From Clostridia bacterium (GTDB lineage Bacteria > Bacillota > Clostridia > Oscillospirales > CAG-272), in the NCBI GenBank assembly GCA_017533565.1, contig JAFXHU010000018.1:1-63387 (forward strand): a stretch of 63,387 nucleotides of DNA. Direction: 5' to 3'. The position numbers were made by a program, and so were the translations under genes. The notes under the pieces are model-generated. The model made no database searches. It was not told where the DNA came from and saw only the letters and a program-made list of their open reading frames with translations. Positions within the stretch are counted from its first letter, which is position 1, and each line of letters starts with the position of its first letter. This document shows positions 25,925-63,387 of the stretch, piece by piece.

Positions 25925-26605
25925 TTATTTAGCAATAGCCTTCCTTACGATAACTATAATCACGAGTATGGCTGCTATCGGAAAAGCAATTATACAGGCT
26001 AACGGAAGGGCGGAAGAAATCTTTCCAAAAAAATCCGCTTCGTAAAGGACAACCTGCTTTCCGTTTGTATTTGTGCGGATAAGCTTTGTATACTCCTTTA
26101 ACACACCGCTTGCGTTATAAGTATTTTCGCCAACCGATTGCTTTTTGTCTTGGAATTTATACCAATAATCGTTGCTTTGGTCTGTGTCGAGAATGCTTTT
26201 GACCGAAATAACCTCACCCGAAAGGTCCACCGTGATTGCATTTGCCCCTCTGACGGTATATACCGTCAGATATTCGTTATTCAGCTCAATATAAAAGCTT
26301 CCGTATTGCTTGAACGAAAATCCGTTTATAAAGCTTCCGTCGCTGTCGAAAACAAGAACCTGCCCGCGCGAGTCTTTTTTGTACCCGATAGCATAACAAC
26401 CGCTTTCGCTTGCCGAAAAAGAAGTGAACTTTCCCTTGTAATTGGGATTTTGTATTTCGTTAAATTCTATGTTTTCAATAATTTTATAGGCTTCGTCGCT
26501 TGTTAAATCCGCGTAATCAAACGATGCTTCCGCATTGCAGTAAAAGCTTACCGTAAAAGCAACCATCAGCAAGAGAATAAGAGATACTTTTGTTTTTTTG
26601 CTCAT
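25925..26605 (-). CDS. Membrane-anchored partner of the RHS protein, unknown family
   Basis: A 226-residue protein with an N-terminal signal (MSKKTKVSLILLLMVAFTVSFYCNAEA; Cys23 could be a lipid site but the box is weak) and a C-terminal membrane helix (about residues 196-220, ALPLACIIAFPIAAILVIIVIV) with a basic end. The region between is beta-strand-rich and polar, so most of the protein should face outside. Its ATG overlaps the RHS stop by four bases, so the two are translationally coupled. A gene placed directly after an RHS tip is often an immunity or accessory factor; that role is inferred from position only. It is AT-rich relative to core genes. Confidence 0.65.
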   Translation of the reverse strand: MSKKTKVSLILLLMVAFTVSFYCNAEASFDYADLTSDEAYKIIENIEFNEIQNPNYKGKFTSFSASESGCYAIGYKKDSRGQVLVFDSDGSFINGFSFKQYGSFYIELNNEYLTVYTVRGANAITVDLSGEVISVKSILDTDQSNDYWYKFQDKKQSVGENTYNASGVLKEYTKLIRTNTNGKQVVLYEADFFGKISSALPLACIIAFPIAAILVIIVIVRKAIAK

Positions 26606-29600
26606 CTTCTAATCTCCTTAAAGAGGTTAATTATATTGAATTGAAAGGCGGTTGAAGTATAACTCATTCCCCCATGAACATCTCCACCTGGAGATGCTGC
26701 TATTCCACCAAAAACAGAATAACCAAAATACGTTTTTCCGTTATTTGAATCTGGTATAAAATAAAGATCCACAGACCCGCCGATAGGCAGTTTATCTACC
26801 GGAACAAACAATGATGCACCTATCACCCCGGCTTCTCCGTTCAAATTGGATACGTTTGGTGCATTGGTTATCATTCTTGTTTTTCCTATACATGCTCCAA
26901 AACCTGCACTTGATGTAATTCCCCACGAAAGGGTATTCTGAAACGCCACGTTGCCATTTGAATCTATAGAAAGAGTTGGCGAAAAGTTTGCAGCAATTGG
27001 TCCAAACATTACACCGATAGATGGTCCAAATGAATATGTAAAATTAACTTCACCCACCGTTTTTACAATATTATTTACGGTAGATGTACACCATTGAGCA
27101 ATATTAACAGTAGATTCTGTTACCCATCCCCACGCATCCTCAACCCATTTGGGCCAATTACCTTGGCTATCGGTCATATTTATGGGATTATTGAAGCAAT
27201 AGACGTAGAGGTTAAGTCCGTGAAGGCTTCCGTTTGCGCCCGACATAAGTGTATCCGGGCTAATAAACCTATACGTATTCGGGTCATAGTATCTGCTCTG
27301 AAGATAATAAAGCCCGAGGTCGGTATCGTAGTAGTAGCTACGGTAACGAAGATTGTTTTTCGTCGCGCTTGTGCTTGCCCCGCCGTTGTAATAGCTTGCA
27401 GTGCATTTGCCCCACGCGTCGTATTTGTATGAAATCAACTGTACACCGTTATTATCGTAAATTGCCACAACGTCGCCGTGTAAATTAAGGTCAAACCAAT
27501 ATATATCCCATTGGTATTGCGTATAAGTGCTTTCGCGGTATGCCATTCCTATCGGTCTGCCGCTTGCGTCGTAGTTGTATATAATCAAATAATACGGTGA
27601 CTTTTCCGCGGCAAGCAAATTTCCGTTCCAATAATACTCCGTTGTAACGCCGTTTACCGTTTTAGACGTACGAAGCCCGTTATCGTTGTAAGTAAAGGAC
27701 ATTGTATTCGTTCCCTTTACCGCGCCTACAAGCTGTCTTCCTTGCCAAGTAAAGGTCGTGCCGTCGTAATAGGTTAACGGATTTCCAAGAGTGTCGTAGG
27801 TTATGGTGCTTCCGTTGAACGACGTAAGCAAATCGCCCCATTCGGAATTTGTGTAGCCGTAGGTCTTTAACGTTTCGTAGCGCGGTGGGATACCACGCTC
27901 TATCATATCTCCGCCGCCTCCGCCATCTAACAGCGGTAATTTCTTTTTAAGTGCGGTGATATTGCCGGAATTGTCATAAACGTACACGTAGGTATTTGTA
28001 CCGTCGTAAACCTGTATCAATTGTCCGAGGTCGTCATAGGTGTAAGTATATTCCTTGCCCGCTATGTATTCGGTTAGGATATAACCCCGTTTATCATAGG
28101 TGTATATATAGGTTTTCTTTACTCCGTTTATCGACGACTCGTATCTTGAAACAAGTCCGTCGGTTTCGTTATCGCCGTAGGTGCGATAGGTGTAATTTTC
28201 ATCACGTTCAAACGTACCCGTTTGTGCATTTTGGTAATCCGCGGAAATCGAGGATATTCGGTCAAACTCGTCGTAGGTATAATATATGTTACCCGTTGTT
28301 CGCGGAAAGTTAATGGAATTTCGATTCAGCGTTTCGTCGGGATTATAATAGTAAACGAGTCCGCTGCTTACCTGGTGAGGTGCGTCACCCACGCGGTAAT
28401 TCAAATAAACGTCTTTAGAGTATATAAGTCCGCTTTGACCGTAATACTCGATTGCGTTAGAAAAATCGATTTCCATATCGCTCTCGGAATACTGCACTGC
28501 CGTGAGAAGCTTGCCGTTAGCGTCGTAATCGTAAATAGTGGCGTCACCGCTTATTTTGTCGGTTACGCTTTGAATTGAGCCGTCCGCGTTGTATTCGTAA
28601 GAATACGCAAGCTCTTTAACCCCGTTTACAGTATAATATATTTCCGAAAGAAAGTCAACATCATTATACTCATATTCCGCTATTAGTCCGTTAGCATATA
28701 CAATTTTTTTAAGCTTTCCGTTATAAGCGTTGTATTCGTAGGAAACAATCTCGTTTTCTCCGATTGATACGGACGTGCGATTATCAAAGCTGTCGTATTC
28801 AAAGCTATACACCGTTGAATCGGTTTCAATGGAGGAAAGTCTATGTATTACGTCGTAGGAATACGTTACGCTCTCGGCATTTGTAACGGTCGTATAGGTT
28901 TGGTCAGAAGCAGAATAGGTTGCGGGATATACGTTAACGAGCCTGTCATATTCGTCATATTCGTTGACGGTACCGTTACCCATCGCCGCATTTACGGTAG
29001 CGAGAAGCTTTCCGTCGCTTTGGTCGTAAAAATATCTTGTGCTGTAAACCTCGTCGCGCGACTCCGTTTCAAGTGCGCCGAAAATGCGCGAGGGGTTGTC
29101 GTCAGCTCCGTATATATACGTGTAATCCGCCGAAAGCTTTTTCGTCCCGGCGGTAGTGTAATAGCCGGACGTGCCAATTGCGGTCACGATGCTTTCGGGC
29201 GCGCTTCCGTCGGTGATATTGCTGTAAACCGTAACGGAGGTTTGAAGACCGTATTCGTCGTAAACGTATTCGGTAATGCTCTTTGGCGTTTTGCTGATTA
29301 AACTGTCAATTTGATTCGTATCATCGAGGAGGCGCACTATCGGAAAATGCTTTGATCCGTCATCTACGGCAATATAATCGGAGGTTATTTCAAATTCCAA
29401 TATACCCGAGGAATCGTATTTGTACTCCGTCATTTCTCCGCGGCTGTTTGCAAAAATCATAATGCGGTTGTTTTTATCGTAGAGGTAATATTCGTAGTAA
29501 TCGTAGCATCTATGCATTACGATCTTGCTAAGCTGATGATGCGTTGTAGAATAATAATCATATTCGTCGGTTGTTTTTCCTTCATCGAGCAAAACCGATA

Positions 29601-31950
29601 TGTTATCAAAATACGCAACGGCTCCGGCGGGTCCGCTAAATTCGCAAACGATATCTACGTACATCAGCTCGCTATAGCTTACGCCGTCTATATTATCCTT
29701 ACCCGCGTTAAATTTTTCCGAAAAAAACTGCCAACCGTCAACTCCTTGCAAAAATTCAAAGTAGAAGCTTTTTACAACAGCTTCGTAGCTTCCGGACGCC
29801 TTGCGATAATAGGCATCAATGCGAATTTTTGGATTTACTGCTTCCGTTATTCCGCCGTTTACCTTTACAAAGCCCGATACGATATAATTATTGTTATGCG
29901 TGCTATTGTTAGAACCAAGCGGAGGGTCTTCTATAATCCTTTGCTTTGCATAGGCGGCTTGTTCGCCTCCGCCCGAAAGAACGAGCGCATTACCAAATCC
30001 GTCGGGTACGTTAGCAAGGGAATAATATCCCTCCCAAAAATCGTCAACCGAGTAGTAATAGGAGCTTTCTTCAAAGCCTCCGAAGGTTACGAGGCTGTAT
30101 TCGGACGCCGCGTCACCGGGCTCCAAAATTACGTCGTAAATAGTAACGCCTCCCTCGTAAACTATATGCTCGTCAAGCTTTTCGAGCCGAACCTCCACAA
30201 CGTAATAATCGGCAAGTGGAGCGGTAACGGTAAAACCTGTTGAAAATTTATAGAGTCCGCCCGTATTTAGGGTTACGTTTCTCGGTATATCCGCTTCGTG
30301 TATGCAATCGTCACTGCTTGCGGCATATATCCGCAAGGTTCCGTAAATTTGCTCCATTGCGTGAGCATTGACGTAAAAGGATAGTGTATAATCCCCTTCG
30401 GATAATACAACGCTTTGACGAAAGCCCGCGGGTTCTCCTATTTCCGGGCACAAATTCGTGGTATAGGTTTCGTTAGCGGAAAGAGCGGAAGCCTCGTTAC
30501 TGCGTACAACGTCGCCGTATTCATTCCAATCGTCAAGCCAATACGCGCTACTATTTAACGTATAGGGTTCATATCCGCCACTACACAGTAGATTTATCGA
30601 GGCACCGCTAAGCGTCGTTGCGGTTTTTATTTTATTTTTGGCTACCGAATCGTCCGTTTGATATTCCGCAAGAGTTGCTCCGTAAATTTCCTTACCGTCT
30701 ATGGAGGCAGAATAAACGGTTTTAGCTCTACCCTTTGAATCAAAGACGTAGCGAGTTATTATATCATCACCGTTGCCAAGCTCATCGTCCTCGCCCGACG
30801 TTCTCACGTCGGTATGACCTGTTTTAAAGGTGACGTCGGTCATTTGTCCAACAACTCCCGCCGACTCGGAAATGCGAAGCGTATTTTCGCTTTGGTAAAC
30901 GTAAGATACCGTCTTTCCGCTTAGCTCGTCACATACGGCTCTTATCTCGTTGTTTGAATCGTATGTAAAGGAAGCCTCTGCAATCTTTAAAATTTTATTA
31001 TTTAAAACCTTATTTGCACGGTATTGCTCAAGGTCGGAATAATTCGCTCCCTCCGTACACTTAACGTATTCAAGAGCTTCAAGCTTCATTCCCGTGCCGT
31101 AACGGAGTATAACTGCATCAAGCGTTACGGGATTATATACCATTGAAAGTTTTTCGTTAACGTAAAAAAGCTTTAACATTTCAATAGCAGTGCCACCGTT
31201 GGGAATTAAATAAACCGTTTCGGGACGATCGTGCCCCATAAATGTAAATTTTACGGAGTTTCCGTATTTATCGGTAATTTGCTCCAGCTTGTATTTTCCG
31301 CTTCCCAATGAAGTAAAAAGCTTTTGAGTTCCGTTCGTATCGGTAATCGTAGCATTTTGTGTCCCGCTATAGCTAAACGTAAGCTCTAATCCGTCGATGT
31401 CGGTGAATTTCCCTTGTCCGTTCATCGCAAAAACGTGAGCAGTACCGTCGGCATCCTCGTAAACGTAATACCTATCTCTTTCTTCATCTATAAGCTCTAC
31501 AATTGTTTCGCATATATTAAGCTTCATTCCGATAGGCGTATAGCTTTGGTCATATTGGTTTAACGAGGAAGAATTATCGTGCGTGCTTCCTTTCAAAACC
31601 GAATTATAAACCAAACTGACAGTTAAAGGCAAAAGATTGTCCGTAGTTGAAATAAGCGGCATTACGTAGGTAAGCTCGCCGCTGTACAAATTAAGATAAC
31701 CCGTATGTCCTGCAACCGCAGAATGCGATATAAGAGGAAAATAAGATTCAATTCCTGCCACGGAAAATATATCGTATTTTTGTTGATTTGAAAGAATTGC
31801 TCTGGTGTTTTGGTTATTTGCTTGCCCGCTTTCCGTGTTTTCATCCCATTCTATTTGGTTCGCAAATACGAGAAGCGGCAGAGAGGCGCAAAGAACCGCA
31901 AACGTCAAAATAAATGAAAAAATTTTTATAAATATCTTTTGCTTATTCAT
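26602..31950 (-). CDS. Large secreted RHS/YD-repeat protein with variable C-terminal tip
   Basis: A 1782-residue protein. Residues 1-30 form a signal peptide. Then come a domain with LYSGELTYVMPLISTTDNLLPLTVSLVYNS (start of an RHS shell), jelly-roll-like carbohydrate-binding segments around 500-850, many YD repeats (YEYN..., YDANGKLL, YTYDDLGQLIQVYDG) and the RHS core near residues 1500-1580 (YYYDTDLGLYYLQSRYYDPNTYRFISPD). After the core is a Gly-rich, strand-rich tail of about 200 residues (FGPSIGVMFGPI...GGSVDLYF...YFGYSVFGGI) that I cannot assign; it would be the polymorphic effector part. GGAGG precedes the ATG. Compared with neighbours the gene is AT-richer and its codons differ, suggesting transfer. 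No PAAR/VgrG domain; export by Sec is expected. Confidence 0.9.
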   Translation of the reverse strand: MNKQKIFIKIFSFILTFAVLCASLPLLVFANQIEWDENTESGQANNQNTRAILSNQQKYDIFSVAGIESYFPLISHSAVAGHTGYLNLYSGELTYVMPLISTTDNLLPLTVSLVYNSVLKGSTHDNSSSLNQYDQSYTPIGMKLNICETIVELIDEERDRYYVYEDADGTAHVFAMNGQGKFTDIDGLELTFSYSGTQNATITDTNGTQKLFTSLGSGKYKLEQITDKYGNSVKFTFMGHDRPETVYLIPNGGTAIEMLKLFYVNEKLSMVYNPVTLDAVILRYGTGMKLEALEYVKCTEGANYSDLEQYRANKVLNNKILKIAEASFTYDSNNEIRAVCDELSGKTVSYVYQSENTLRISESAGVVGQMTDVTFKTGHTDVRTSGEDDELGNGDDIITRYVFDSKGRAKTVYSASIDGKEIYGATLAEYQTDDSVAKNKIKTATTLSGASINLLCSGGYEPYTLNSSAYWLDDWNEYGDVVRSNEASALSANETYTTNLCPEIGEPAGFRQSVVLSEGDYTLSFYVNAHAMEQIYGTLRIYAASSDDCIHEADIPRNVTLNTGGLYKFSTGFTVTAPLADYYVVEVRLEKLDEHIVYEGGVTIYDVILEPGDAASEYSLVTFGGFEESSYYYSVDDFWEGYYSLANVPDGFGNALVLSGGGEQAAYAKQRIIEDPPLGSNNSTHNNNYIVSGFVKVNGGITEAVNPKIRIDAYYRKASGSYEAVVKSFYFEFLQGVDGWQFFSEKFNAGKDNIDGVSYSELMYVDIVCEFSGPAGAVAYFDNISVLLDEGKTTDEYDYYSTTHHQLSKIVMHRCYDYYEYYLYDKNNRIMIFANSRGEMTEYKYDSSGILEFEITSDYIAVDDGSKHFPIVRLLDDTNQIDSLISKTPKSITEYVYDEYGLQTSVTVYSNITDGSAPESIVTAIGTSGYYTTAGTKKLSADYTYIYGADDNPSRIFGALETESRDEVYSTRYFYDQSDGKLLATVNAAMGNGTVNEYDEYDRLVNVYPATYSASDQTYTTVTNAESVTYSYDVIHRLSSIETDSTVYSFEYDSFDNRTSVSIGENEIVSYEYNAYNGKLKKIVYANGLIAEYEYNDVDFLSEIYYTVNGVKELAYSYEYNADGSIQSVTDKISGDATIYDYDANGKLLTAVQYSESDMEIDFSNAIEYYGQSGLIYSKDVYLNYRVGDAPHQVSSGLVYYYNPDETLNRNSINFPRTTGNIYYTYDEFDRISSISADYQNAQTGTFERDENYTYRTYGDNETDGLVSRYESSINGVKKTYIYTYDKRGYILTEYIAGKEYTYTYDDLGQLIQVYDGTNTYVYVYDNSGNITALKKKLPLLDGGGGGDMIERGIPPRYETLKTYGYTNSEWGDLLTSFNGSTITYDTLGNPLTYYDGTTFTWQGRQLVGAVKGTNTMSFTYNDNGLRTSKTVNGVTTEYYWNGNLLAAEKSPYYLIIYNYDASGRPIGMAYRESTYTQYQWDIYWFDLNLHGDVVAIYDNNGVQLISYKYDAWGKCTASYYNGGASTSATKNNLRYRSYYYDTDLGLYYLQSRYYDPNTYRFISPDTLMSGANGSLHGLNLYVYCFNNPINMTDSQGNWPKWVEDAWGWVTESTVNIAQWCTSTVNNIVKTVGEVNFTYSFGPSIGVMFGPIAANFSPTLSIDSNGNVAFQNTLSWGITSSAGFGACIGKTRMITNAPNVSNLNGEAGVIGASLFVPVDKLPIGGSVDLYFIPDSNNGKTYFGYSVFGGIAASPGGDVHGGMSYTSTAFQFNIINLFKEIRR

Positions 31951-31974: not shown

Positions 31975-32012
31975 CTATAAAAACGCAAAGCGACCCCATA
32001 AGAGGTCGCTTT
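31975..32012 (-). terminator. Terminator-like hairpin in the RHS leader
   Basis: Reverse strand AAAGCGACC/GGTCGCTTT stem with an 8-base loop, then GCGTTTTTATAG. It lies after the leader ORF and before the RHS RBS, the place of an attenuator. Confidence 0.7.
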
Positions 32013-32014
32013 AT

Positions 32015-32059
32015 CTAATAGAAGGTATATTTTTCCTGTCGGTTACGGTTTCTTTTCAT
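32015..32059 (-). CDS. Putative 14-residue leader peptide before the RHS gene
   Basis: A short frame MKRNRNRQEKYTFY with a strong RBS (GAGGAGG, six bases before the ATG), located between the RHS promoter and a terminator-like hairpin whose stem begins three bases after the stop. The layout of promoter, small ORF, hairpin, structural gene is that of leader-peptide attenuation. The peptide is basic and has no run of one amino acid, so translation-speed sensing of a single amino acid is not evident. Whether it is translated is not known. Confidence 0.5.
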   Translation of the reverse strand: MKRNRNRQEKYTFY

Positions 32060-32090
32060 ATTTTTCCTCCTCAGAGGGTTTTACACTTAT

Positions 32091-32119
32091 AATATAGCAT
32101 ATATAATGAATTTTGTCAA
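32091..32119 (-). promoter_or_regulatory. Promoter of the leader ORF and RHS gene
   Basis: Reverse strand TTGACA, 17-bp spacer ending TGC, TATATT. Predicted transcript start is about 25 bases before the leader ATG and about 135 bases before the RHS start. Confidence 0.85.
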
Positions 32120-37465: not shown

Positions 37466-37730
37466 TCCTGTAGTCGAACAAGCCACGTCGTCCTGAAAAG
37501 TACAAAAGTTTTCGACCTGGCGGCAGGGGCACGGGGGGAGAAAGGGATAGTCGAGGAAAGCCTAGGTCGTCGGCTTCGGGAGAGCAGGGACGAGGGCTTG
37601 AGGGAGAAAGATTTCAGTGCTCGTGGATAAGGGTATTAGAGAGCTAGTACTAAATATTTATATATATTTTAGGACAGAGGGCGAGGGAAGAAGAGAGTTA
37701 GGCTATATATTGGTCGTAGGAAAAAGAAAA
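37466..37730. other. Purine-rich noncoding stretch of unknown origin
   Basis: No gene supported. The + strand is strongly G/A-rich between about 37510 and 37640 (for example GGCGGCAGGGGCACGGGGGG and GGGAGAGCAGGGACGAGGGC), unlike any other part of the window, then AT-rich to 37670, then purine-rich again to 37730. No frame looks coding on either strand. Confidence 0.6.
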
Positions 37731-37854
37731 AAGCACTTTGCTGTTTAGGCAGAGTGCTTTAATGCTTTTAAATTGTTTTTTAGTTGCTAAAGACAATAAA
37801 TATTAGGTCGAAAGCTTTTGTCGTTTTCGTTTAAATTGATATTGTCTTATAACA
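37731..37854 (+). repeat. Direct repeat, left copy: duplicated rpsR 3' UTR and terminator
   Basis: A 124-bp segment nearly identical to 38605-38726 (122 bp). It opens with a terminator hairpin AGCACTTTGC/GCAGAGTGCT and continues through AATGCTTTTAAATTG, TTGCTAAAGACAATA and TTAGGTCGAAAGCTTTTGTC. Apart from the hairpin loop I count only about six differences. Confidence 0.95.
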
Positions 37855-37900
37855 TAGTACAGCTCTGCAACATATATTTATTGCTTTCATAATAAATTTC

Positions 37901-37929
37901 TTGCAATATAATGAGTTTAATGTTATACT
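37901..37929 (+). promoter_or_regulatory. Promoter of the SGNH hydrolase gene
   Basis: TTGCAA, 17-bp spacer ending TGT, TATACT, 66 bp before the ATG at 37996. Confidence 0.78.
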
Positions 37930-37995
37930 AAAGAAAAGATATAGCTAAATGTGAGCTATAATCTTATATATAATCATAAAGAAAGGAATAATATT

Positions 37996-38559
37996 ATGAA
38001 AAAAACAAAGGTTGTGCTTCTTGGGGATTCGATAAGACTTTTCGGTTATGGAATAAAGGTGCCGGAGCTTCTCGGTGAGGAGTATGAGGTGTTCCAGCCG
38101 ACTGATAACTGTAGATTTTCAAAGTATCTTTTGCATACGCTTCTCGATTATAAAAAGGAGATCGATGATGCAGATATAATTCACTTCAATGCCGGTGAAT
38201 GGGACGTTTCACGCGAATTTAGTACAGACGGCAGACCCTTTACCTCTCTCGAGGAGTATATTGACAATATGACTAGGATTGTAAAATATCTCAAAGATAA
38301 GAACAAAAAGCTGATTTTTGCAACGACAACGCCCGTGCTTGCTCACCATTATTGCAACAGTAACGAGGATATAATCAAATACAACAAAGCAATAGTTCCG
38401 GTACTTATGGAAATGGGAGTTGAGATAAACGATCTTTTCTCGCTCGTAAGCGAATCACCCTGTGATTACATAAGAGAAGATGATGCTATTCATCTTTCGG
38501 ACAAAGGAATAGAGGTAACTGCAAAGCAGGTAGCCGAGCATATAAGAGCATTGAGTTGA
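37996..38559 (+). CDS. SGNH/GDSL-type hydrolase
   Basis: A 187-residue protein with the SGNH order: block I LLGDSIR (nucleophile Ser12), block III HFNAGEWD (Asn65; the usual G-x-N-D is altered to N-A-G-E), and block V DAIHLSDKG (Asp163, His166). No signal peptide, so a cytoplasmic esterase or deacetylase is likely; substrate unknown. I chose ATG 37996 with AAAGGAAT upstream. Codon use is clearly more AT-rich than neighbouring core genes, and the gene with its promoter lies between two copies of a 122-124 bp direct repeat, pointing to acquisition. Confidence 0.85.
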   Translation: MKKTKVVLLGDSIRLFGYGIKVPELLGEEYEVFQPTDNCRFSKYLLHTLLDYKKEIDDADIIHFNAGEWDVSREFSTDGRPFTSLEEYIDNMTRIVKYLKDKNKKLIFATTTPVLAHHYCNSNEDIIKYNKAIVPVLMEMGVEINDLFSLVSESPCDYIREDDAIHLSDKGIEVTAKQVAEHIRALS

Positions 38560-38604
38560 AAATTAGCCCCTTTATCATTAAAACCCTTTATCATTAAAAT
38601 AAGA

Positions 38605-38726
38605 AAGCACTCTGCGAAATGCAGAGTGCTTTAATGCTTTTAAATTGTTTTTTCGTTGCTAAAGACAATATATATTAGGTCGAAAGCTTTTGTCGTTTTC
38701 GTTTAAAATGATATTGCCTTATAACA
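38605..38726 (-). repeat. Direct repeat, right copy: native rpsR 3' UTR and terminator
   Basis: It ends nine bases from the rpsR stop codon and contains the operon terminator, AGCACTCTGC-GAAAT-GCAGAGTGCT, at its left end. Same orientation as the copy at 37731-37854. Confidence 0.95.
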
Positions 38727-57992: not shown

Positions 57993-58122
57993 TGCTTATC
58001 AAGAGAGGCGGAGGGACTGGCCCTATGAAGCCCGGCAACCTGTTAATTCAAGGTGCCAATTCCTGACAGATGAGGTTTTTCGGTCGGGAGTTGCCGCAGC
58101 TTGGCAATTTCCGTTTTTCTTT
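57993..58122 (+). promoter_or_regulatory. SAM-I (S-box) riboswitch with terminator
   Basis: The aptamer (about 57993-58076) has the S-box core: CTTATCAAGAGAGGCGGAGG, then GGCCCTATGAAGCCCGGCAAC, AAGGTGCCAATTCC and GACAGATGAG, whose last bases pair with the first. The expression platform is the terminator GGGAGTTGCC/GGCAATTTCC with T5 (58086-58122). When S-adenosylmethionine binds, the terminator forms and metK is switched off, a direct product feedback. Confidence 0.97.
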
Positions 58123-58141: not shown

Positions 58142-59326
58142 ATGAAAAAAGTTTTATTCACCTCCGAATCGGTTACCGAGGGGCATCCCGATAAAATCTG
58201 CGACAAAATCTCGGATGCGATTCTTGACGAAATCTTGGCACAGGACCCCGAAAGCCGCGTTGCCTGCGAAACCTTTGCAACCACGGGTATTATCACCGTA
58301 AGGGGCGAAATCACCACGAAGGCAAAATTCGACGTACAGAAAATAGTTCGCGACACCGTTTGCGAAATCGGCTACGACAGGGCAAAGTACGGCTTTGACG
58401 GAAGAACCTGCGCCGTTATGTCCTCTATTCACGAGCAGTCGGAGGATATCGCCCTTGGCGTTGATAAATGCCTCGAGGCAAAGGAGGGCACCTCAACCAA
58501 CAGCCTTGATACGGGTGCGGGTGACCAGGGGCTTATGTTCGGCTACGCCTGCGACGAAACCCCCGAGCTTATGCCGCTTCCCATCTCGCTCGCGCACAAG
58601 CTTGCAATGCGCCTTACCGAGGTGAGAAAGAACGGAAGGCTTAACTACCTCCGTCCCGACGGAAAAACGCAGGTTACCGTTGAATATATTGACGGCGTGC
58701 CCGCCCGTGTCGATACAATCGTCGTTTCCTCACAGCATTCCGCTGAAATCGATAACGCCACGATAAGAAAGGATATTATCGAGCAGGTTATCCTCCCCGT
58801 CGTGCCCTCCGCGCTTCTTGACGGAAAGGTAAATATCTACGTCAATCCCACGGGACGCTTCGTTATCGGCGGACCGCAGGGCGATACGGGACTTACGGGA
58901 AGGAAAATTATCGTCGATACGTACGGCGGCTACTCCAGACACGGAGGCGGCGCATTTTCGGGTAAAGACCCGACGAAGGTTGACCGCAGTGCCTCCTACG
59001 CCGCAAGATACGTTGCGAAAAACGTCGTAAAGGCGGGACTCGCTACGAAATGCGAGGTACAGCTTGCCTACGCCATCGGTATTGCAAAGCCCGTTTCGGT
59101 TATGATTGACACCTTTGGTACTGCGGTATGCGACGAGGCAAAAATTGCCGACGCGGTTAATCAGCTCGTTGACCTTCGCCCCGCGGCAATTATCGAAAAG
59201 CTTGAGCTTCGTAAGCCCATTTACAAGAACCTCGCCGCATACGGACATATGGGACGCGAGGACCTCGGCGTAAAGTGGGAGGAGTGCGATATCGCGGACA
59301 AGCTTCGCACCCTCTGCCTCGGCTAA
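58142..59326 (+). CDS. metK: S-adenosylmethionine synthetase
   Basis: A 394-residue MetK, making SAM from methionine and ATP. Motifs: [21 protein letters not shown] at the start, [12 protein letters not shown] (residues about 119-130), [42 protein letters not shown]. Full length. AAGGAG precedes ATG 58142. Controlled by the SAM-I riboswitch upstream. Its terminator is duplicated 1.8 kb downstream, past the RHS fragment. Confidence 0.98.
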
Positions 59327-59339
59327 TTCCGTTTAAATA

Positions 59340-59376
59340 CCCCCGCGACCCCGAAAAATCGGGGTCGCTTTTATTT
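59340..59376 (+). terminator. metK terminator; left copy of a 37-bp direct repeat
   Basis: GCGACCCCG/CGGGGTCGC stem with an AAAAAT loop and TTTTATTT. The same 37 bases recur at 61183-61219. Confidence 0.95.
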
Positions 59377-59451
59377 CTCCCCGCCGCAAAGCGGTGAAAT
59401 CCCGCCCGAAAAAAGAAAAAACACCTAAAAAACGAAATCCCGCCCCAAAAG

Positions 59452-59480
59452 TTGACAAAATCGCCACGGTATGCTAAAAT
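59452..59480 (+). promoter_or_regulatory. Promoter upstream of the displaced RHS tip
   Basis: TTGACA, 17-bp spacer ending TGC, TAAAAT. The RHS frame opens right after it (59483), so the promoter abuts the truncation point. The stretch 59377-59451 has no other feature. Confidence 0.85.
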
Positions 59481-59566
59481 AAGAGCGTAAAGGCGCGGTA
59501 AAGGCACAATCCAAAGCAAAATATTTCAAAAGCGACGTAGTATCGGTATATGACAATTCGGGAATT

Positions 59567-60325
59567 ATGCGGTTGTCCTATTCGTACGATGCGTGGGGAC
59601 AGTGTGAAATCGAATACGTTAACGGCGGAGAATTTTGCACCGCAAGGAAAAACCGTTTAGCCTACCGCGGCTACTATTACGACACCGACCTCGGGCTTTA
59701 CTATCTGCAAAGCAGGTATTACGATGCGAATACTTGTAGATTTATAAACGCCGACAGCTATATCTCCACCGGTCAGGGAATCCTCGGCTATAATATGTAC
59801 GCTTATTGCGGAAATAATCCGGTGAATCGTGTTGACCCTACGGGAGAGGCTTTGTGGTATTGGCTTTGCTATGCGGTTTCTCCTGTGGTTACAACCGTTC
59901 TCGCTACTGCAAATGATATATATCAAATTGCTTCGGGGGCGGTAAAGCCTTTAGAAAACGATGAACAAGATAGTGTGCAAATTCAAAATTCAAATAAAAT
60001 TTTAACACCTTTTGCACAAACAGCTATAGCAATTTATACTGATTACATAAAACCAGAAACAAAAGATTTGATTAATGGTTCAGTATATGGTGTTGTTTTT
60101 GAATGGACATTACATAATATTGCATACGATGCTTTAACGTTTTTGGGTGTTAAAGGAAATTTGGTAGAAAGTGCTGCTCACGTTGATGTAGGAAGTACAA
60201 TCTATTCTGATAACACTCATAAAAATGCAAGTAAGGCAATGCATATATTTTACACCGCAAGTTTCATTTTTAATCCAAAATCTGTAATGTTTGACATCGT
60301 TACACACGTTTTTAGGAGAAAGTGA
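59567..60325 (+). CDS. 5'-truncated RHS core plus C-terminal tip (orphan cassette)
   Basis: 252 residues from the only ATG; RHS homology continues upstream without a start codon to about 59522 (YFKSDVVSVYDNSG). It holds the end of the RHS core (YDAWG..., YRGYYYDTDLGLYYLQSRYYDANTCRFINADSY, NPVNRVDPTG), closely matching the large RHS protein, and then a tip of about 160 residues unrelated to the other tip (EWTLHNIAYDALTFLG...ASKAMHIFYTASFIF). No signal peptide or shell, so it cannot be exported by itself: a displaced orphan tip or remnant. The tip DNA is much AT-richer than the flanking core genes. ATG lacks a good RBS. Confidence 0.8.
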   Translation: MRLSYSYDAWGQCEIEYVNGGEFCTARKNRLAYRGYYYDTDLGLYYLQSRYYDANTCRFINADSYISTGQGILGYNMYAYCGNNPVNRVDPTGEALWYWLCYAVSPVVTTVLATANDIYQIASGAVKPLENDEQDSVQIQNSNKILTPFAQTAIAIYTDYIKPETKDLINGSVYGVVFEWTLHNIAYDALTFLGVKGNLVESAAHVDVGSTIYSDNTHKNASKAMHIFYTASFIFNPKSVMFDIVTHVFRRK

Positions 60326-60326
60326 T

Positions 60327-61181
60327 ATGTTTAAAAAACTGATTACTGCACTCATAATAATTTCCGTTTTGTTAAGCTGTACATCTTGTATAAACCGTGA
60401 TCCCCACCCCGACATAGTACGAGAAAAATTTTCTACTCTCACTCCAAAAAACCAAGTATGTATTTCCACATACGATTCATTTTATACGGGAAACCAAGTT
60501 TTTTCACATGATGCATTGATTTCTTGATTGAAAGAAACGGAGGATGTGTCGGTTGTTGTGTGTACACTTTACGATTCAAAAATATACACTCTGGCAGAGG
60601 CACCACTTGATAAAAATTCTCTTCATATTTATGTTGTTGAGTTTGATGTCGCAAGCAATAGCTCTACTCTTGTTTTTGATTCTGATATTATTTGTTCTTG
60701 GGTGTATGCGTATAGAGGCTCAAATGGAATTCTTGGTATTTATAGTACAGCCGGAAACAAAGAATATTACTATTCTTACGTGATAGAAACGGGTGAATTT
60801 ATCAAGGATAAGGTTGACGATAAACAATTTGATATAGATATTTATAATGACTCGCTTTTCAATGCTCAAAAAGGTGGATTTACAATTGTCAATAGAGAAA
60901 CGGGCGTTAAAAAAATGGTGAACGCAGATACTGTTTCCGCATCGGAATACGCTAATTGCTTTTCGGATTTATTTTATTACCCCGGCACCTATGCTCAATG
61001 TGGTGATACTATTGTATTGGCTTATATCATAGATTCTTGCGCAAATAAAGGCTTTGATTTTACTGTTGGATATTTCTACGCTTGTTTTACTTACGATTTT
61101 GAAACCGAAGCTCTGGAGTTTGATTCATTGCTTTATACAAACGAAGGAGAAGGCGTAAATTTATCGTATAATACACAGTAA
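60327..61181 (+). pseudogene. Lipoprotein gene interrupted by an in-frame TGA
   Basis: Begins MFKKLITALIIISVLLSCTSC, a clear lipoprotein signal, with AGGAG nine bases upstream, one base after the RHS-tip stop. After 66 codons the frame meets TGA (60525-60527) and then continues open for 217 more codons in the same frame (LKETEDVSVVVCTLYDSKIYTL...). The second part is strand-rich (FDVASNSSTLVFDSD, YAYRGSNGILGIYST). No new RBS or ATG follows the TGA, so a nonsense mutation in a gene of about 283 codons is most likely. By position it would be the partner or immunity-like gene of the tip. AT-rich. Confidence 0.8.
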
Positions 61182-61182
61182 C

Positions 61183-61222
61183 CCCCCGCGACCCCGAAAA
61201 ATCGGGGTCGCTTTTATTTTTT
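61183..61222 (+). terminator. Terminator; right copy of the 37-bp direct repeat
   Basis: Identical to the metK terminator over 61183-61219, then more T residues. It follows the broken lipoprotein gene directly. Confidence 0.95.
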
Positions 61223-61241: not shown

Positions 61242-61270
61242 TTGAAAAGCAGAGCGAAAAATGGTATAAT
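61242..61270 (+). promoter_or_regulatory. Promoter of recD2
   Basis: TTGAAA, 17-bp spacer ending TGG, TATAAT, 30 bp before the ATG. Confidence 0.85.
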
Positions 61271-61300: not shown

Positions 61301-63387
61301 ATGGACGCCGTAGCAAAAATGGATACGATACAGGGCACCGTTGAAAATATCGTTTATCACAACGACGTGAACGATTATACCGTGCTGGAGCTTAACTGCG
61401 ACGACCTTTTAGTTGTGGCGGTTGGCGAGATTGCGGGCGTTACGGAGGGCGAAATTCTCGTCCTGCGCGGCAGCTGGACACGGCACAAGGATTTCGGTAA
61501 GCAGTTTTCCTTCACCTCCTACGAACGGTTTTTGCCCACCGAGATAGAGGGTATCATACAGTATCTTTCAAGCCGCACGATAAAGGGCGTCGGACCGGTT
61601 ACCGCGCTAAAAATCGTAAACCGTTTCGGCACGGATACCTTCGACGTTATGGAAAACCACCCCGAATGGCTCGCAGATATTCCGGGAATTACAATGAAGA
61701 AGGCGGCGGCTATCTCCGAGTCCTTCCGCGAGCAGGGCGAATTTCGCCGCGTAATGATGTTTTTCGGCAACAAGGTAGAGCCAACCAAGGTCACCCGCAT
61801 TTACAAAAAGCTTGGCAGCGAGTCGGTTGGAATTATACAGCAAAACCCATACGTCCTTTGCGGAGTTGATTATGGGCTTCGCTTTGAAACGGTGGACAGC
61901 CTCGCGGCGTCCTTCGGCTTTTCTCCTCTTGCTCCCGAGCGAATTTTCGCGGGCATAGAATACGCGCTTGATTTTAACGCGCACACAAACGGGCACACCT
62001 GCCTGCCAAAGGAAAAGCTTATCCCCGCGGCGGCGGAAATCCTCTCGGTGGAGCCTTACGTCGTTTCGGGAATGCTCGAGGAGTTTATTGCGGAGGACAA
62101 AATCCACCAATACTCCGACGGAGCAAACGTTTACGTTATGACAAACGACGTGCGCGAGGACGAGGAGCTTATAGTAAGGCGCATTCGCGAAATGGGGCGG
62201 GAGCTTGTTACCGTGTCCCGCCGCGACGTTGACAGTATGATAGAGTCGATGGAAAACCTCGCGGGCATAAGATACGCAAATCTTCAAAGAAAGGCGCTTC
62301 ACCTTGCAATGTGCTCGCCCGTCACGGTAATTACGGGAGGACCCGGCACGGGCAAAACCACCGTAGTTCGTGCGCTTTTATCTATGTTTGGACAGCTTGG
62401 ACTTAAAACCGTGCTTGCCGCCCCGACGGGCAGAGCCGCGAAAAGGTTAAGCGAAACCACCTCCGAGGAGGCAAAAACGATTCACCGCCTTCTTGAAATG
62501 GAGCGTACCGAAACCGAGAATTTCCACTTTAACCGAAATTCCCGCAACCCCCTTGAGGAAAACGCGGTTATAATCGACGAGGCGTCGATGGTGGATCTCT
62601 CGCTTATGGCTTCGCTTATGCGCGCCCTTCGCCGCGGCACGAGGCTCGTGCTTATCGGCGACTCCGACCAGCTTCCGAGCGTGGGTGCGGGCAACGTGCT
62701 TGCCGACGTAATTGCCTCGGGCGCGGTTGAAACCGTCTGCCTTACCGAAATATTCAGACAGGCACAGGACAGCCTTATCGTCACCAACGCACACAATATA
62801 AATGCGGGAGTGCCTCCCGTCCTCAATGTCACCGACAACGATTTCTTTTTCGTAAGGCGAGAGGAGGCGAGCATTGCCGCTACGGTTGCGGAGCTTATAA
62901 TGACGAGATTGCCGCGCGCCTACGGCGAGTATATAAGAGATGGCATACAGGTTATCACCCCCTCGAAAAAGGGTGCGGGAGGCGTAGAGGTGCTTAACAA
63001 GGAGCTGCAGGCTAAAATAAATCCCCCCGCCGATGGCAAAAAGGAAAAGTCCGCCCACGGCAGCATCTTCCGCGAGGGGGACAGGGTTATGCAAATCACG
63101 AATAATTACGAGCTTGAATGGGAGAAAAACGGTATAACAGGCTACGGAGTCTTTAACGGCGACGTCGGGCAAATCCTTGCGATAAATCACAGAGAGGGAA
63201 GTATGACTGTCCGCTTTGACGACCGATTGCTCGAATATCCCTTCGACAATCTTGACGAAATGGAGCTTGCCTACGCGATTACCGTCCATAAAAGTCAGGG
63301 AAGCGAATACCCCGTGGTTATCATACCGATGTATTACTGTGCGCCGATGCTTATGACGCGAAATCTTCTCTATACCGCCGTCACGAG
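61301..63387 (+). CDS. recD2: RecD2-type SF1B DNA helicase, 3' end outside the window
   Basis: Partial; 695 residues are visible of a protein usually about 740 long. The N-terminal part (MDTIQGTVENIVYHNDVNDYTVLEL...VGEIAGVTEGE) and helix-hairpin-helix-like segments (IKGVGPVTALKIVNRFG, LADIPGITMKKAAAI) are RecD2-specific. Motif I is GGPGTGKTT, motif II IIDEASMVD, motif III LIGDSDQLPSVGAG, and motif V/VI YAITVHKSQGSEYP and TRNLLYTAVT. It acts in DNA repair and replication without RecBC. GGAGGTGA precedes the ATG. Confidence 0.96.
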   Translation, partial: MDAVAKMDTIQGTVENIVYHNDVNDYTVLELNCDDLLVVAVGEIAGVTEGEILVLRGSWTRHKDFGKQFSFTSYERFLPTEIEGIIQYLSSRTIKGVGPVTALKIVNRFGTDTFDVMENHPEWLADIPGITMKKAAAISESFREQGEFRRVMMFFGNKVEPTKVTRIYKKLGSESVGIIQQNPYVLCGVDYGLRFETVDSLAASFGFSPLAPERIFAGIEYALDFNAHTNGHTCLPKEKLIPAAAEILSVEPYVVSGMLEEFIAEDKIHQYSDGANVYVMTNDVREDEELIVRRIREMGRELVTVSRRDVDSMIESMENLAGIRYANLQRKALHLAMCSPVTVITGGPGTGKTTVVRALLSMFGQLGLKTVLAAPTGRAAKRLSETTSEEAKTIHRLLEMERTETENFHFNRNSRNPLEENAVIIDEASMVDLSLMASLMRALRRGTRLVLIGDSDQLPSVGAGNVLADVIASGAVETVCLTEIFRQAQDSLIVTNAHNINAGVPPVLNVTDNDFFFVRREEASIAATVAELIMTRLPRAYGEYIRDGIQVITPSKKGAGGVEVLNKELQAKINPPADGKKEKSAHGSIFREGDRVMQITNNYELEWEKNGITGYGVFNGDVGQILAINHREGSMTVRFDDRLLEYPFDNLDEMELAYAITVHKSQGSEYPVVIIPMYYCAPMLMTRNLLYTAVT

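What the first reader, a model, noticed from the sequence alone, without database searches (positions are those of the whole stretch)
59340..61219. RHS-tip island bounded by a 37-bp exact duplication of the metK terminator
The metK terminator (59340-59376) is repeated base for base at 61183-61219, exactly after the RHS tip and broken lipoprotein gene and before the recD2 promoter. The DNA between is AT-rich and accessory. Removing one copy plus the cargo restores a plain metK-terminator-recD2 order. This looks like insertion by homologous recombination or template switching between terminator copies, with no recombinase needed.
Basis: partly seen in the sequence, partly recalled or inferred. 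Interest (0 to 1): 0.72.

Follow-up and report, generated by a model that had tools for sequence, protein, structure and literature searches.

The report
Toxin-tip relic between duplicated metK terminators
A worn-down fragment of a bacterial toxin locus sits between two identical copies of a neighbouring gene's transcription stop signal, and some related bacteria show the same pattern at other toxin fragments, which hints at how such fragments are copied into new places.

Summary
A 37-bp intrinsic terminator stands 13 nt after metK (59340-59376) and again, base for base, before the recD2 promoter (61183-61219). Between lies an AT-rich Rhs orphan unit: promoter, leader remnant, Rhs core tip with variable C-terminus, and an immunity-like lipoprotein gene broken by an in-frame TGA. 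The hairpin has three copies in the held genome; the third ends another Rhs-tip array. It was not found in 68 other genomes of the genus. metK lies directly before recD2 in 27 of 29 relatives examined, without Rhs tip or this hairpin. The pattern recurs with other hairpins: repeated terminators occur in 9 of 69 Rhs loci against 0 of 46 control stretches, and in two other genomes runs of Rhs tips are flanked by duplicated host gene borders (92 and 417 bp). Variable repeat lengths and no recombinase in the insert favour duplication by homology or template switching; this is inferred, not shown. The window holds a second, non-Rhs gene flanked by a duplicated rpsR terminator region.

The parts
58142..59326 (+). 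metK, preceded by a SAM riboswitch at 57993-58076
   Evidence: Pfam S-AdoMet_synt N/M/C; Rfam SAM
59340..59376 (+). T-left: metK intrinsic terminator, first copy of the 37-bp repeat
59377..59451 (+). spacer; 59409-59482 resembles the region before another Rhs promoter on contig C1 (73% over 74 nt)
59452..59480 (+). cassette promoter, TTGACA-17-TAAAAT with TG before the -10; no ribosome site or start codon seen close behind it
   Evidence: (11 of 12 consensus bases)
59481..59537 (+). Rhs leader remnant ending in the 5' arm of an attenuator-like hairpin (AAGCGAC), fused within GCGAC to the Rhs core GDVV motif: read as a deletion junction that removed the delivery core
   Evidence: 79% match of 59451-59536 to a C1 leader; sequence comparison
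59567..60325 (+). Rhs tip ORF; Rhs_assc_core at about 59585-59845, variable C-terminal region after NPVNRVDPTG
60327..61181 (+). immunity-like lipoprotein gene with a ribosome site by eye, broken by an in-frame TGA at 60525-60527; distant homologue in the C1 array (pieces compared apart, 34% and 28%)
61183..61219 (+). T-right: second copy of the 37-bp terminator
61242..61270 (+). recD2 promoter, TTGAAA-17-TATAAT
61301..63385 (+). recD2 (runs off the window)
   Evidence: Pfam HHH_RecD2 and helicase domains

Best explanation
The island is the relic of an Rhs toxin-immunity transcription unit (promoter to immunity gene) that was inserted into the metK-recD2 gap. The insertion duplicated the metK terminator, so the unit now lies between two direct copies. 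I think the join was made by general recombination or replication template switching at the terminator, without a dedicated recombinase. Shown: exact repeat, rarity, Rhs linkage, an Rhs-free metK-recD2 order in relatives, promoter and leader homology to other Rhs loci of the same genome, and a like architecture with other hairpins and other repeat lengths elsewhere. Inferred: that metK's copy is the older one; that the delivery core was lost later by a deletion at a GCGAC microhomology between the leader hairpin arm and the core; that the promoter now serves only the downstream immunity-like gene, which is itself broken; and that the third hairpin copy at the end of the C1 array came from exchange between the two Rhs loci, which also share 104 identical bases of core tip.
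For: 37/37 identity with unrelated flanks. Hairpin found at 3 places in the genome, all Rhs-linked; 6 of 7 GCGACC..GGTCGC hairpins in the genome lie at Rhs loci; 0 of 68 other genus genomes hold it at up to 2 mismatches, and there is no exact match in the genome-contig collection, from which the window's own genome or one very near may be left out. metK directly upstream of recD2 in 27 of 29 relatives. Among 209 terminator sites in 527 kb of this genome, three sets repeat: this one, a tandem pair 190 bp apart, and a pair near two contig ends. In G007, 82 sites in 193 kb (its Rhs contigs included) give one repeated set of four: two bound an Rhs cassette, one precedes a long Rhs gene, one is not at an Rhs locus. 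Repeated terminators in 9 of 69 Rhs loci against 0 of 46 controls, Fisher p 0.008. Runs of Rhs tips flanked by duplicated host borders in G146 (92 bp, 94.6%) and G305 (417 bp, 94.7%). 104 identical bases shared with a C1 tip.
Against: No relative with one copy of this terminator was found. 60 of 69 Rhs loci and 21 of 28 genus genomes do not show a repeated terminator; many loci are cut by contig ends. The full-length Rhs locus of the same window does not end in this hairpin and the C1 array does not begin with it. 37 bp is short for efficient homologous recombination: PMC9484751 (passages read) cites 40-70 nt for other bacteria. In G002, G007, G061, G133 and G178 the terminator also stands between or at the end of tandem cassettes, which fits a terminator carried by the cassette as well. 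The G146 empty site could not be seen in 5 relatives of its genus. Controls for the count come from two genomes only, and the count falls to 6 of 68 (p 0.041) without the window island and two repeats that have the spacing of core paralogy.
Confidence: 0.55

Rival explanations
1. The terminator belongs to the Rhs cassette, not to metK. The moving unit is promoter-tip-immunity-terminator; tandem duplication and recombination between terminator copies and between cores make arrays and exchange tips, and the copy after metK was brought in or converted by the cassette.
For: In G007, G002, G061, G133 and G178 the same terminator stands between or at the end of tandem cassettes. Both fetched Rhs loci of G011, three of seven of G063 and the C1 array here have their genome's repeated hairpin after the last cassette genes. 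On C1 the hairpin follows an ORF that runs through it without a stop.
Against: The left copy sits where a metK terminator is expected and the scan shows no other + strand terminator there. In G146 and G305 the duplicated piece is host gene border (promoter and start region of the next gene; 3' end of a rodA-like gene), not cassette.
Confidence: 0.27
2. Site-specific integration: the hairpin is an attachment site used by a recombinase acting from elsewhere, giving attL and attR.
For: Direct repeats at both ends; the hairpin is palindromic; three copies at island ends.
Against: No recombinase-like ORF seen in the insert. Repeat length varies from 32 to 417 bp and the sequence differs between genomes. 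No Y1 transposase in 5 of 7 genomes with the pattern, this one among the five. Tyrosine and serine recombinases were not searched.
Confidence: 0.1
3. Coincidence, gene conversion between two unrelated terminators, or an assembly fault.
For: This is a draft assembly of 39 contigs; 37 bp is short.
Against: Exact identity over 37 bp including both borders; one 144-kb contig; recurrence in other assemblies; only two other repeated sets among 209 sites in 527 kb of this genome.
Confidence: 0.05

Closest known systems
Orphan rhs-CT/rhsI and cdiA-CT/cdiI modules (PMC3150448, passages read; PMC3967940, passages read)
   Same: Truncated toxin tips without start codon, each followed by an immunity gene, often in arrays; exchange through the conserved upstream part; tandem duplication proposed as a step
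   Different: 'terminator' does not occur in the main text of either paper. Here a repeated terminator marks cassette borders, and the window unit stands alone between housekeeping genes
Effector-immunity displacement in Vibrio cholerae T6SS clusters (PMC5361080, passages read)
   Same: New modules inserted and old immunity genes kept; homologous or homology-facilitated illegitimate recombination proposed
   Different: No terminator repeat described ('terminator' not in the main text)
Neisseria DUS inverted-repeat terminators beside effector-immunity clusters (PMC10210955, passages read)
   Same: A repeated terminator-forming sequence next to toxin-immunity genes
   Different: DUS are, as I recall, present in very high copy number and linked to DNA uptake; this hairpin has three copies
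tpsC cassettes of meningococci (PMC3848433, passages read)
   Same: Arrays of truncated toxin-gene cassettes with immunity ORFs; transformation experiments show recombination
   Different: Recombination lies within tpsA-related sequence; 'terminator' not in the main text

Membership tests
Rhs/YD orphan toxin-immunity module | Rhs-associated core domain followed by a variable C-terminus | tested here: met
   TIGR03696 at E 4.7e-20, DPTG then sequence without a Pfam or NCBIfam match
Rhs/YD orphan toxin-immunity module | N-terminal delivery part absent | tested here: met
   ORF of 252 aa against 1782 aa at 26602-31950
Rhs/YD orphan toxin-immunity module | cognate immunity gene downstream | tested here: inconclusive
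   lipoprotein-like gene in the right place, broken, no Pfam or NCBIfam family above cut-off
Integrated mobile element with att sites | integrase or recombinase within or beside the element | tested here: not met
   no such ORF seen between the repeats; the rest of the genome was not searched for integrases
IS200/IS605-type element | Y1 transposase available in the genome | tested here: not met
   PF01797 not found in G000 (77% complete); absent in 5 of 7 genomes tested, G000 among them
Transposon with target-site duplication | duplication of fixed length | tested here: not met
   37, 92 and 417 bp around Rhs tips and 133 bp around a GDSL-like gene
Uptake-signal terminators (DUS type) | high copy number in the genome | tested here: not met
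   3 copies
Integron cassette array | IntI integrase and attC sites | not tested
   considered only as a likeness of layout

The most novel reading that the evidence does not exclude
In this bacterial order intrinsic terminators serve as the movable borders of Rhs toxin-immunity cassettes. Insertion at a terminator duplicates it, and the copies then act as the downstream homology arm, with the Rhs core as the upstream arm, so that new tips can be added while old immunity genes are kept. The result is a recombinase-free cassette array with terminators in the place of recombination sites. It may extend to other small cargo, as the GDSL-like gene in the same window suggests.
Probability: 0.22. 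Interest if true: 0.75.

Novelty: new variant of a known kind. Interest (0 to 1): 0.5.

Why it matters
How displaced toxin tips get their downstream junction is not settled; PMC5361080 (passages read) says '(perhaps)' homology-facilitated illegitimate recombination. A repeated terminator at cassette borders gives a concrete, testable second homology arm, and a sequence mark by which orphan cassettes and their insertion sites can be found in genomes. If it is only the footprint of tandem duplication, it still helps to order the events.

Tried and rejected
Common-terminator reading: rejected, 3 copies and 0 in 68 other genus genomes. IS200/605 hairpin-end reading: not supported. Attenuator origin of the hairpin: the leader hairpins GCGACCTCTTATGGGGTCGC and GCGACCTTTCGGGGTCGC share the GGGGTCGCTTT arm with the terminator; I could not decide whether one derives from the other. 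Empty site for G146: upstream genes differ in 5 relatives, nothing to compare. G214 repeats (TCTGACAGGGGACGGTTCTCTGTCAGA, four copies near tips) were dropped as a different kind of palindrome. L184 and L187 count among the 9 of 69 but their repeats have the spacing of core paralogy; they were left out in the strict count. L128 (G061), L182 (G305) and L188 (G146) were missed by the detector and are not in the 9. Pfam gave nothing above its cut-offs for the tip ORF or the lipoprotein pieces. A T-box before thrS on C1, suspected by eye, was not found by Rfam. PMC11278526 and PMC4432121 (passages read) gave no matching case. Papers listed and not named elsewhere were seen only as listings. After those four searches of an open-licence library I know of no print description of terminator-bounded Rhs cassettes; most subscription papers are not in it.

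Full report
Observation. The bases 59340-59376 and 61183-61219 are identical (37 of 37) and the sequences beyond both borders are unrelated. Both fold into a 10-bp stem of -21.2 kcal/mol with a T-rich tail, and the scan calls them on the + strand only. The first stands 13 nt after the metK stop; the second begins one base after the stop codon of the lipoprotein-like gene and ends 22 nt before the -35 box of recD2. Between them the DNA has 37.6% GC, against 54% for metK and 53% for recD2.

What lies between. From left to right there is a spacer, a strong sigma-70-type promoter at 59452-59480, a leader remnant, an Rhs tip and an immunity-like lipoprotein gene. The spacer and leader match two other Rhs leaders of the same genome, on contig C1 (73% over 74 nt and 79% over 86 nt). 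The tip ORF carries the Rhs_assc_core domain. The leader ends in AAGCGAC, the 5' arm of an attenuator-like hairpin that is whole before the full-length gene and at both C1 leaders. It runs on as GACGTAGTATCGG, the counterpart of the GDVV motif in the full-length Rhs gene, where the DNA reads GGCGACGTTGTGG. I read this as a deletion at the shared GCGAC that removed the delivery core and the hairpin's other arm. The lipoprotein gene has an in-frame TGA at 60525-60527. So the unit looks like a whole Rhs locus that lost its core and is decaying. The order of events is inferred.

Rarity. The 24-nt hairpin occurs three times in the 1.71-Mb assembly at up to 3 mismatches: twice here and once at C1:24779. 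The broader pattern GCGACC-N(4-18)-GGTCGC has seven places, six of them at Rhs loci. No other genome among 69 of the genus has the hairpin at up to 2 mismatches (22 of the 69 are at least 90% complete), and an exact scan of the genome-contig collection found none, though the window's own genome or one very near may be left out there. On C1 the hairpin ends an array of Rhs tips between thrS and a TraG/VirD4-like gene, and the last ORF there runs through it. The window tip and a C1 tip share 104 identical bases. The full-length Rhs gene of the window (26602-31950, minus strand) does not end in this hairpin.

Empty site. RecD2 matches were found in 54 of 59 genomes; the best 30 came as loci (own plus 29 relatives of the genus). 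In 27 of these 29 metK lies directly upstream; in L024 and L025 it does not. Gaps run from 33 to 1076 nt; by eye many show one hairpin terminator, of differing sequence. None of the 29 loci has the GCGACC hairpin, and no Rhs core match lies on their contigs. The closest relative is only 61% identical over the first 299 residues of RecD2, so the terminator before insertion cannot be read from relatives.

Recurrence in the genus. Rhs core matches occur in 29 of 69 genomes. I fetched Rhs loci of 28 of them (G089 left out). A terminator-like hairpin is repeated at Rhs loci in seven: G000, G002, G007, G011, G031, G063 and, seen by eye, G061. The hairpin differs in each. In G007 the last cassette of an array lies between identical 32-mers, then an amino-acid-kinase-family gene, pyrH by eye, follows. 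Genome-wide that hairpin has three exact and two near copies, four of the five at Rhs loci, one of these between a transketolase gene and a long Rhs gene. In G061 two cassettes lie between three copies. In G011 both fetched loci have the same hairpin after the cassette genes, and in G063 three of seven do. The other 21 genomes showed none by this test; many of their loci are cut by contig ends.

Recurrence in the order. Rhs core matches occur in 70 of 247 genomes. I fetched 20 arrays from 19 genomes, chosen for tandem tips. Repeated terminators at cassette borders are seen in G133, G178, G190 and G299. In two further loci runs of tips are flanked by duplicated host DNA. In G146 (two tips) a 92-bp repeat (94.6%) holds a terminator plus the -10, ribosome site and start region of the next gene, an AMP-binding enzyme. 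In G305 (three tips) a 417-bp repeat (94.7%) holds the 3' end and terminator of a rodA-like gene; its left copy runs straight into Rhs core, and the ORFs further left are of unknown nature.

Control. With one detector (shared exact stretch of at least 20 bp around two terminators 0.4-8 kb apart), 9 of 69 Rhs loci are positive, the window island among them, and 0 of 46 control stretches (608,670 bp, 445 hairpins, from G000 and G007 only); Fisher p 0.008. Leaving out the window and two repeats with the spacing of core paralogy gives 6 of 68, p 0.041. In 527 kb of this genome 209 terminator sites hold three repeated sets: this one, a tandem pair 190 bp apart and a pair near two contig ends.

Mechanism. 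Repeat lengths of 32 to 417 bp and genome-specific sequences speak against a transposase or a fixed attachment site. No recombinase ORF was seen in the insert and no Y1 transposase was found in this assembly. A duplication made by recombination or template switching at the terminator fits best (0.55). The main rival is a cassette that carries its own terminator and spreads by terminator-terminator and core-core recombination (0.27). Both may be true in sequence: insertion duplicates the host terminator, and later exchange spreads it, as the C1 copy suggests. Only close strains or an experiment can decide. 37 bp is short for RecA-type exchange by the 40-70 nt cited in PMC9484751 (passages read).

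Comparison with print. Orphan Rhs and CDI modules, their arrays and their exchange through the conserved part are known (PMC3150448, PMC3967940, PMC5361080, PMC3848433; passages read in each), and tandem duplication has been proposed. The word terminator does not occur in those four main texts. Neisseria DUS terminators beside effector-immunity clusters (PMC10210955, passages read) are the nearest likeness.

A second case in the window. A GDSL-like ORF at 37996-38559 (36% GC insert; Pfam match below cut-off) lies between direct repeats of 133 bp at 90%, one of which holds the terminator downstream of rpsR. No relative of the gene was found downstream of rpsR in the 25 of 29 relatives' loci with at least 600 bases in hand. 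So terminator-duplicating insertion may not be limited to Rhs.

Noticed in passing
37722-38726: A GDSL-like ORF (37996-38559) lies between 133-bp direct repeats (90% identical) that hold the terminator region downstream of rpsR; not found there in 25 relatives with enough sequence. It looks like a second terminator-duplicating insertion, without Rhs.
   Followed up: partly
31983-32115 (minus strand): Before the full-length Rhs gene a promoter is followed by a 14-codon leader ORF (MKRNRNRQEKYTFY, 32015-32059), then an attenuator-like hairpin and the gene. An 87-bp stretch of it is identical on C1, where it is fused to a tip without core. Possibly attenuation of toxin expression.
   Followed up: partly
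L011:7095-12803 (G000:C1:19094-24802): Array of decayed Rhs tips and lipoprotein-like genes between thrS and a TraG/VirD4-like gene, ending in the same hairpin as the window island.
   Followed up: yes
L131:176 and L150:1202 (G000 C2 and C22, near contig ends): Another repeated terminator (AAACGACAGGTTTCGACCTGTCGTTT) near the ends of two contigs, one beside an ORF that by eye resembles a phage integrase (not tested).
   Followed up: no
Rhs loci of the genus: Many contigs of these assemblies end inside an Rhs core or tip, so arrays are often cut and the counts here may be low.
   Followed up: no
L189 (G214:C26) 6104, 6834, 7872, 7928: Palindromic repeat TCTGACAGGGGACGGTTCTCTGTCAGA in four copies around Rhs tips; a similar motif is in L188. 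It looks like a different repeat family.
   Followed up: no
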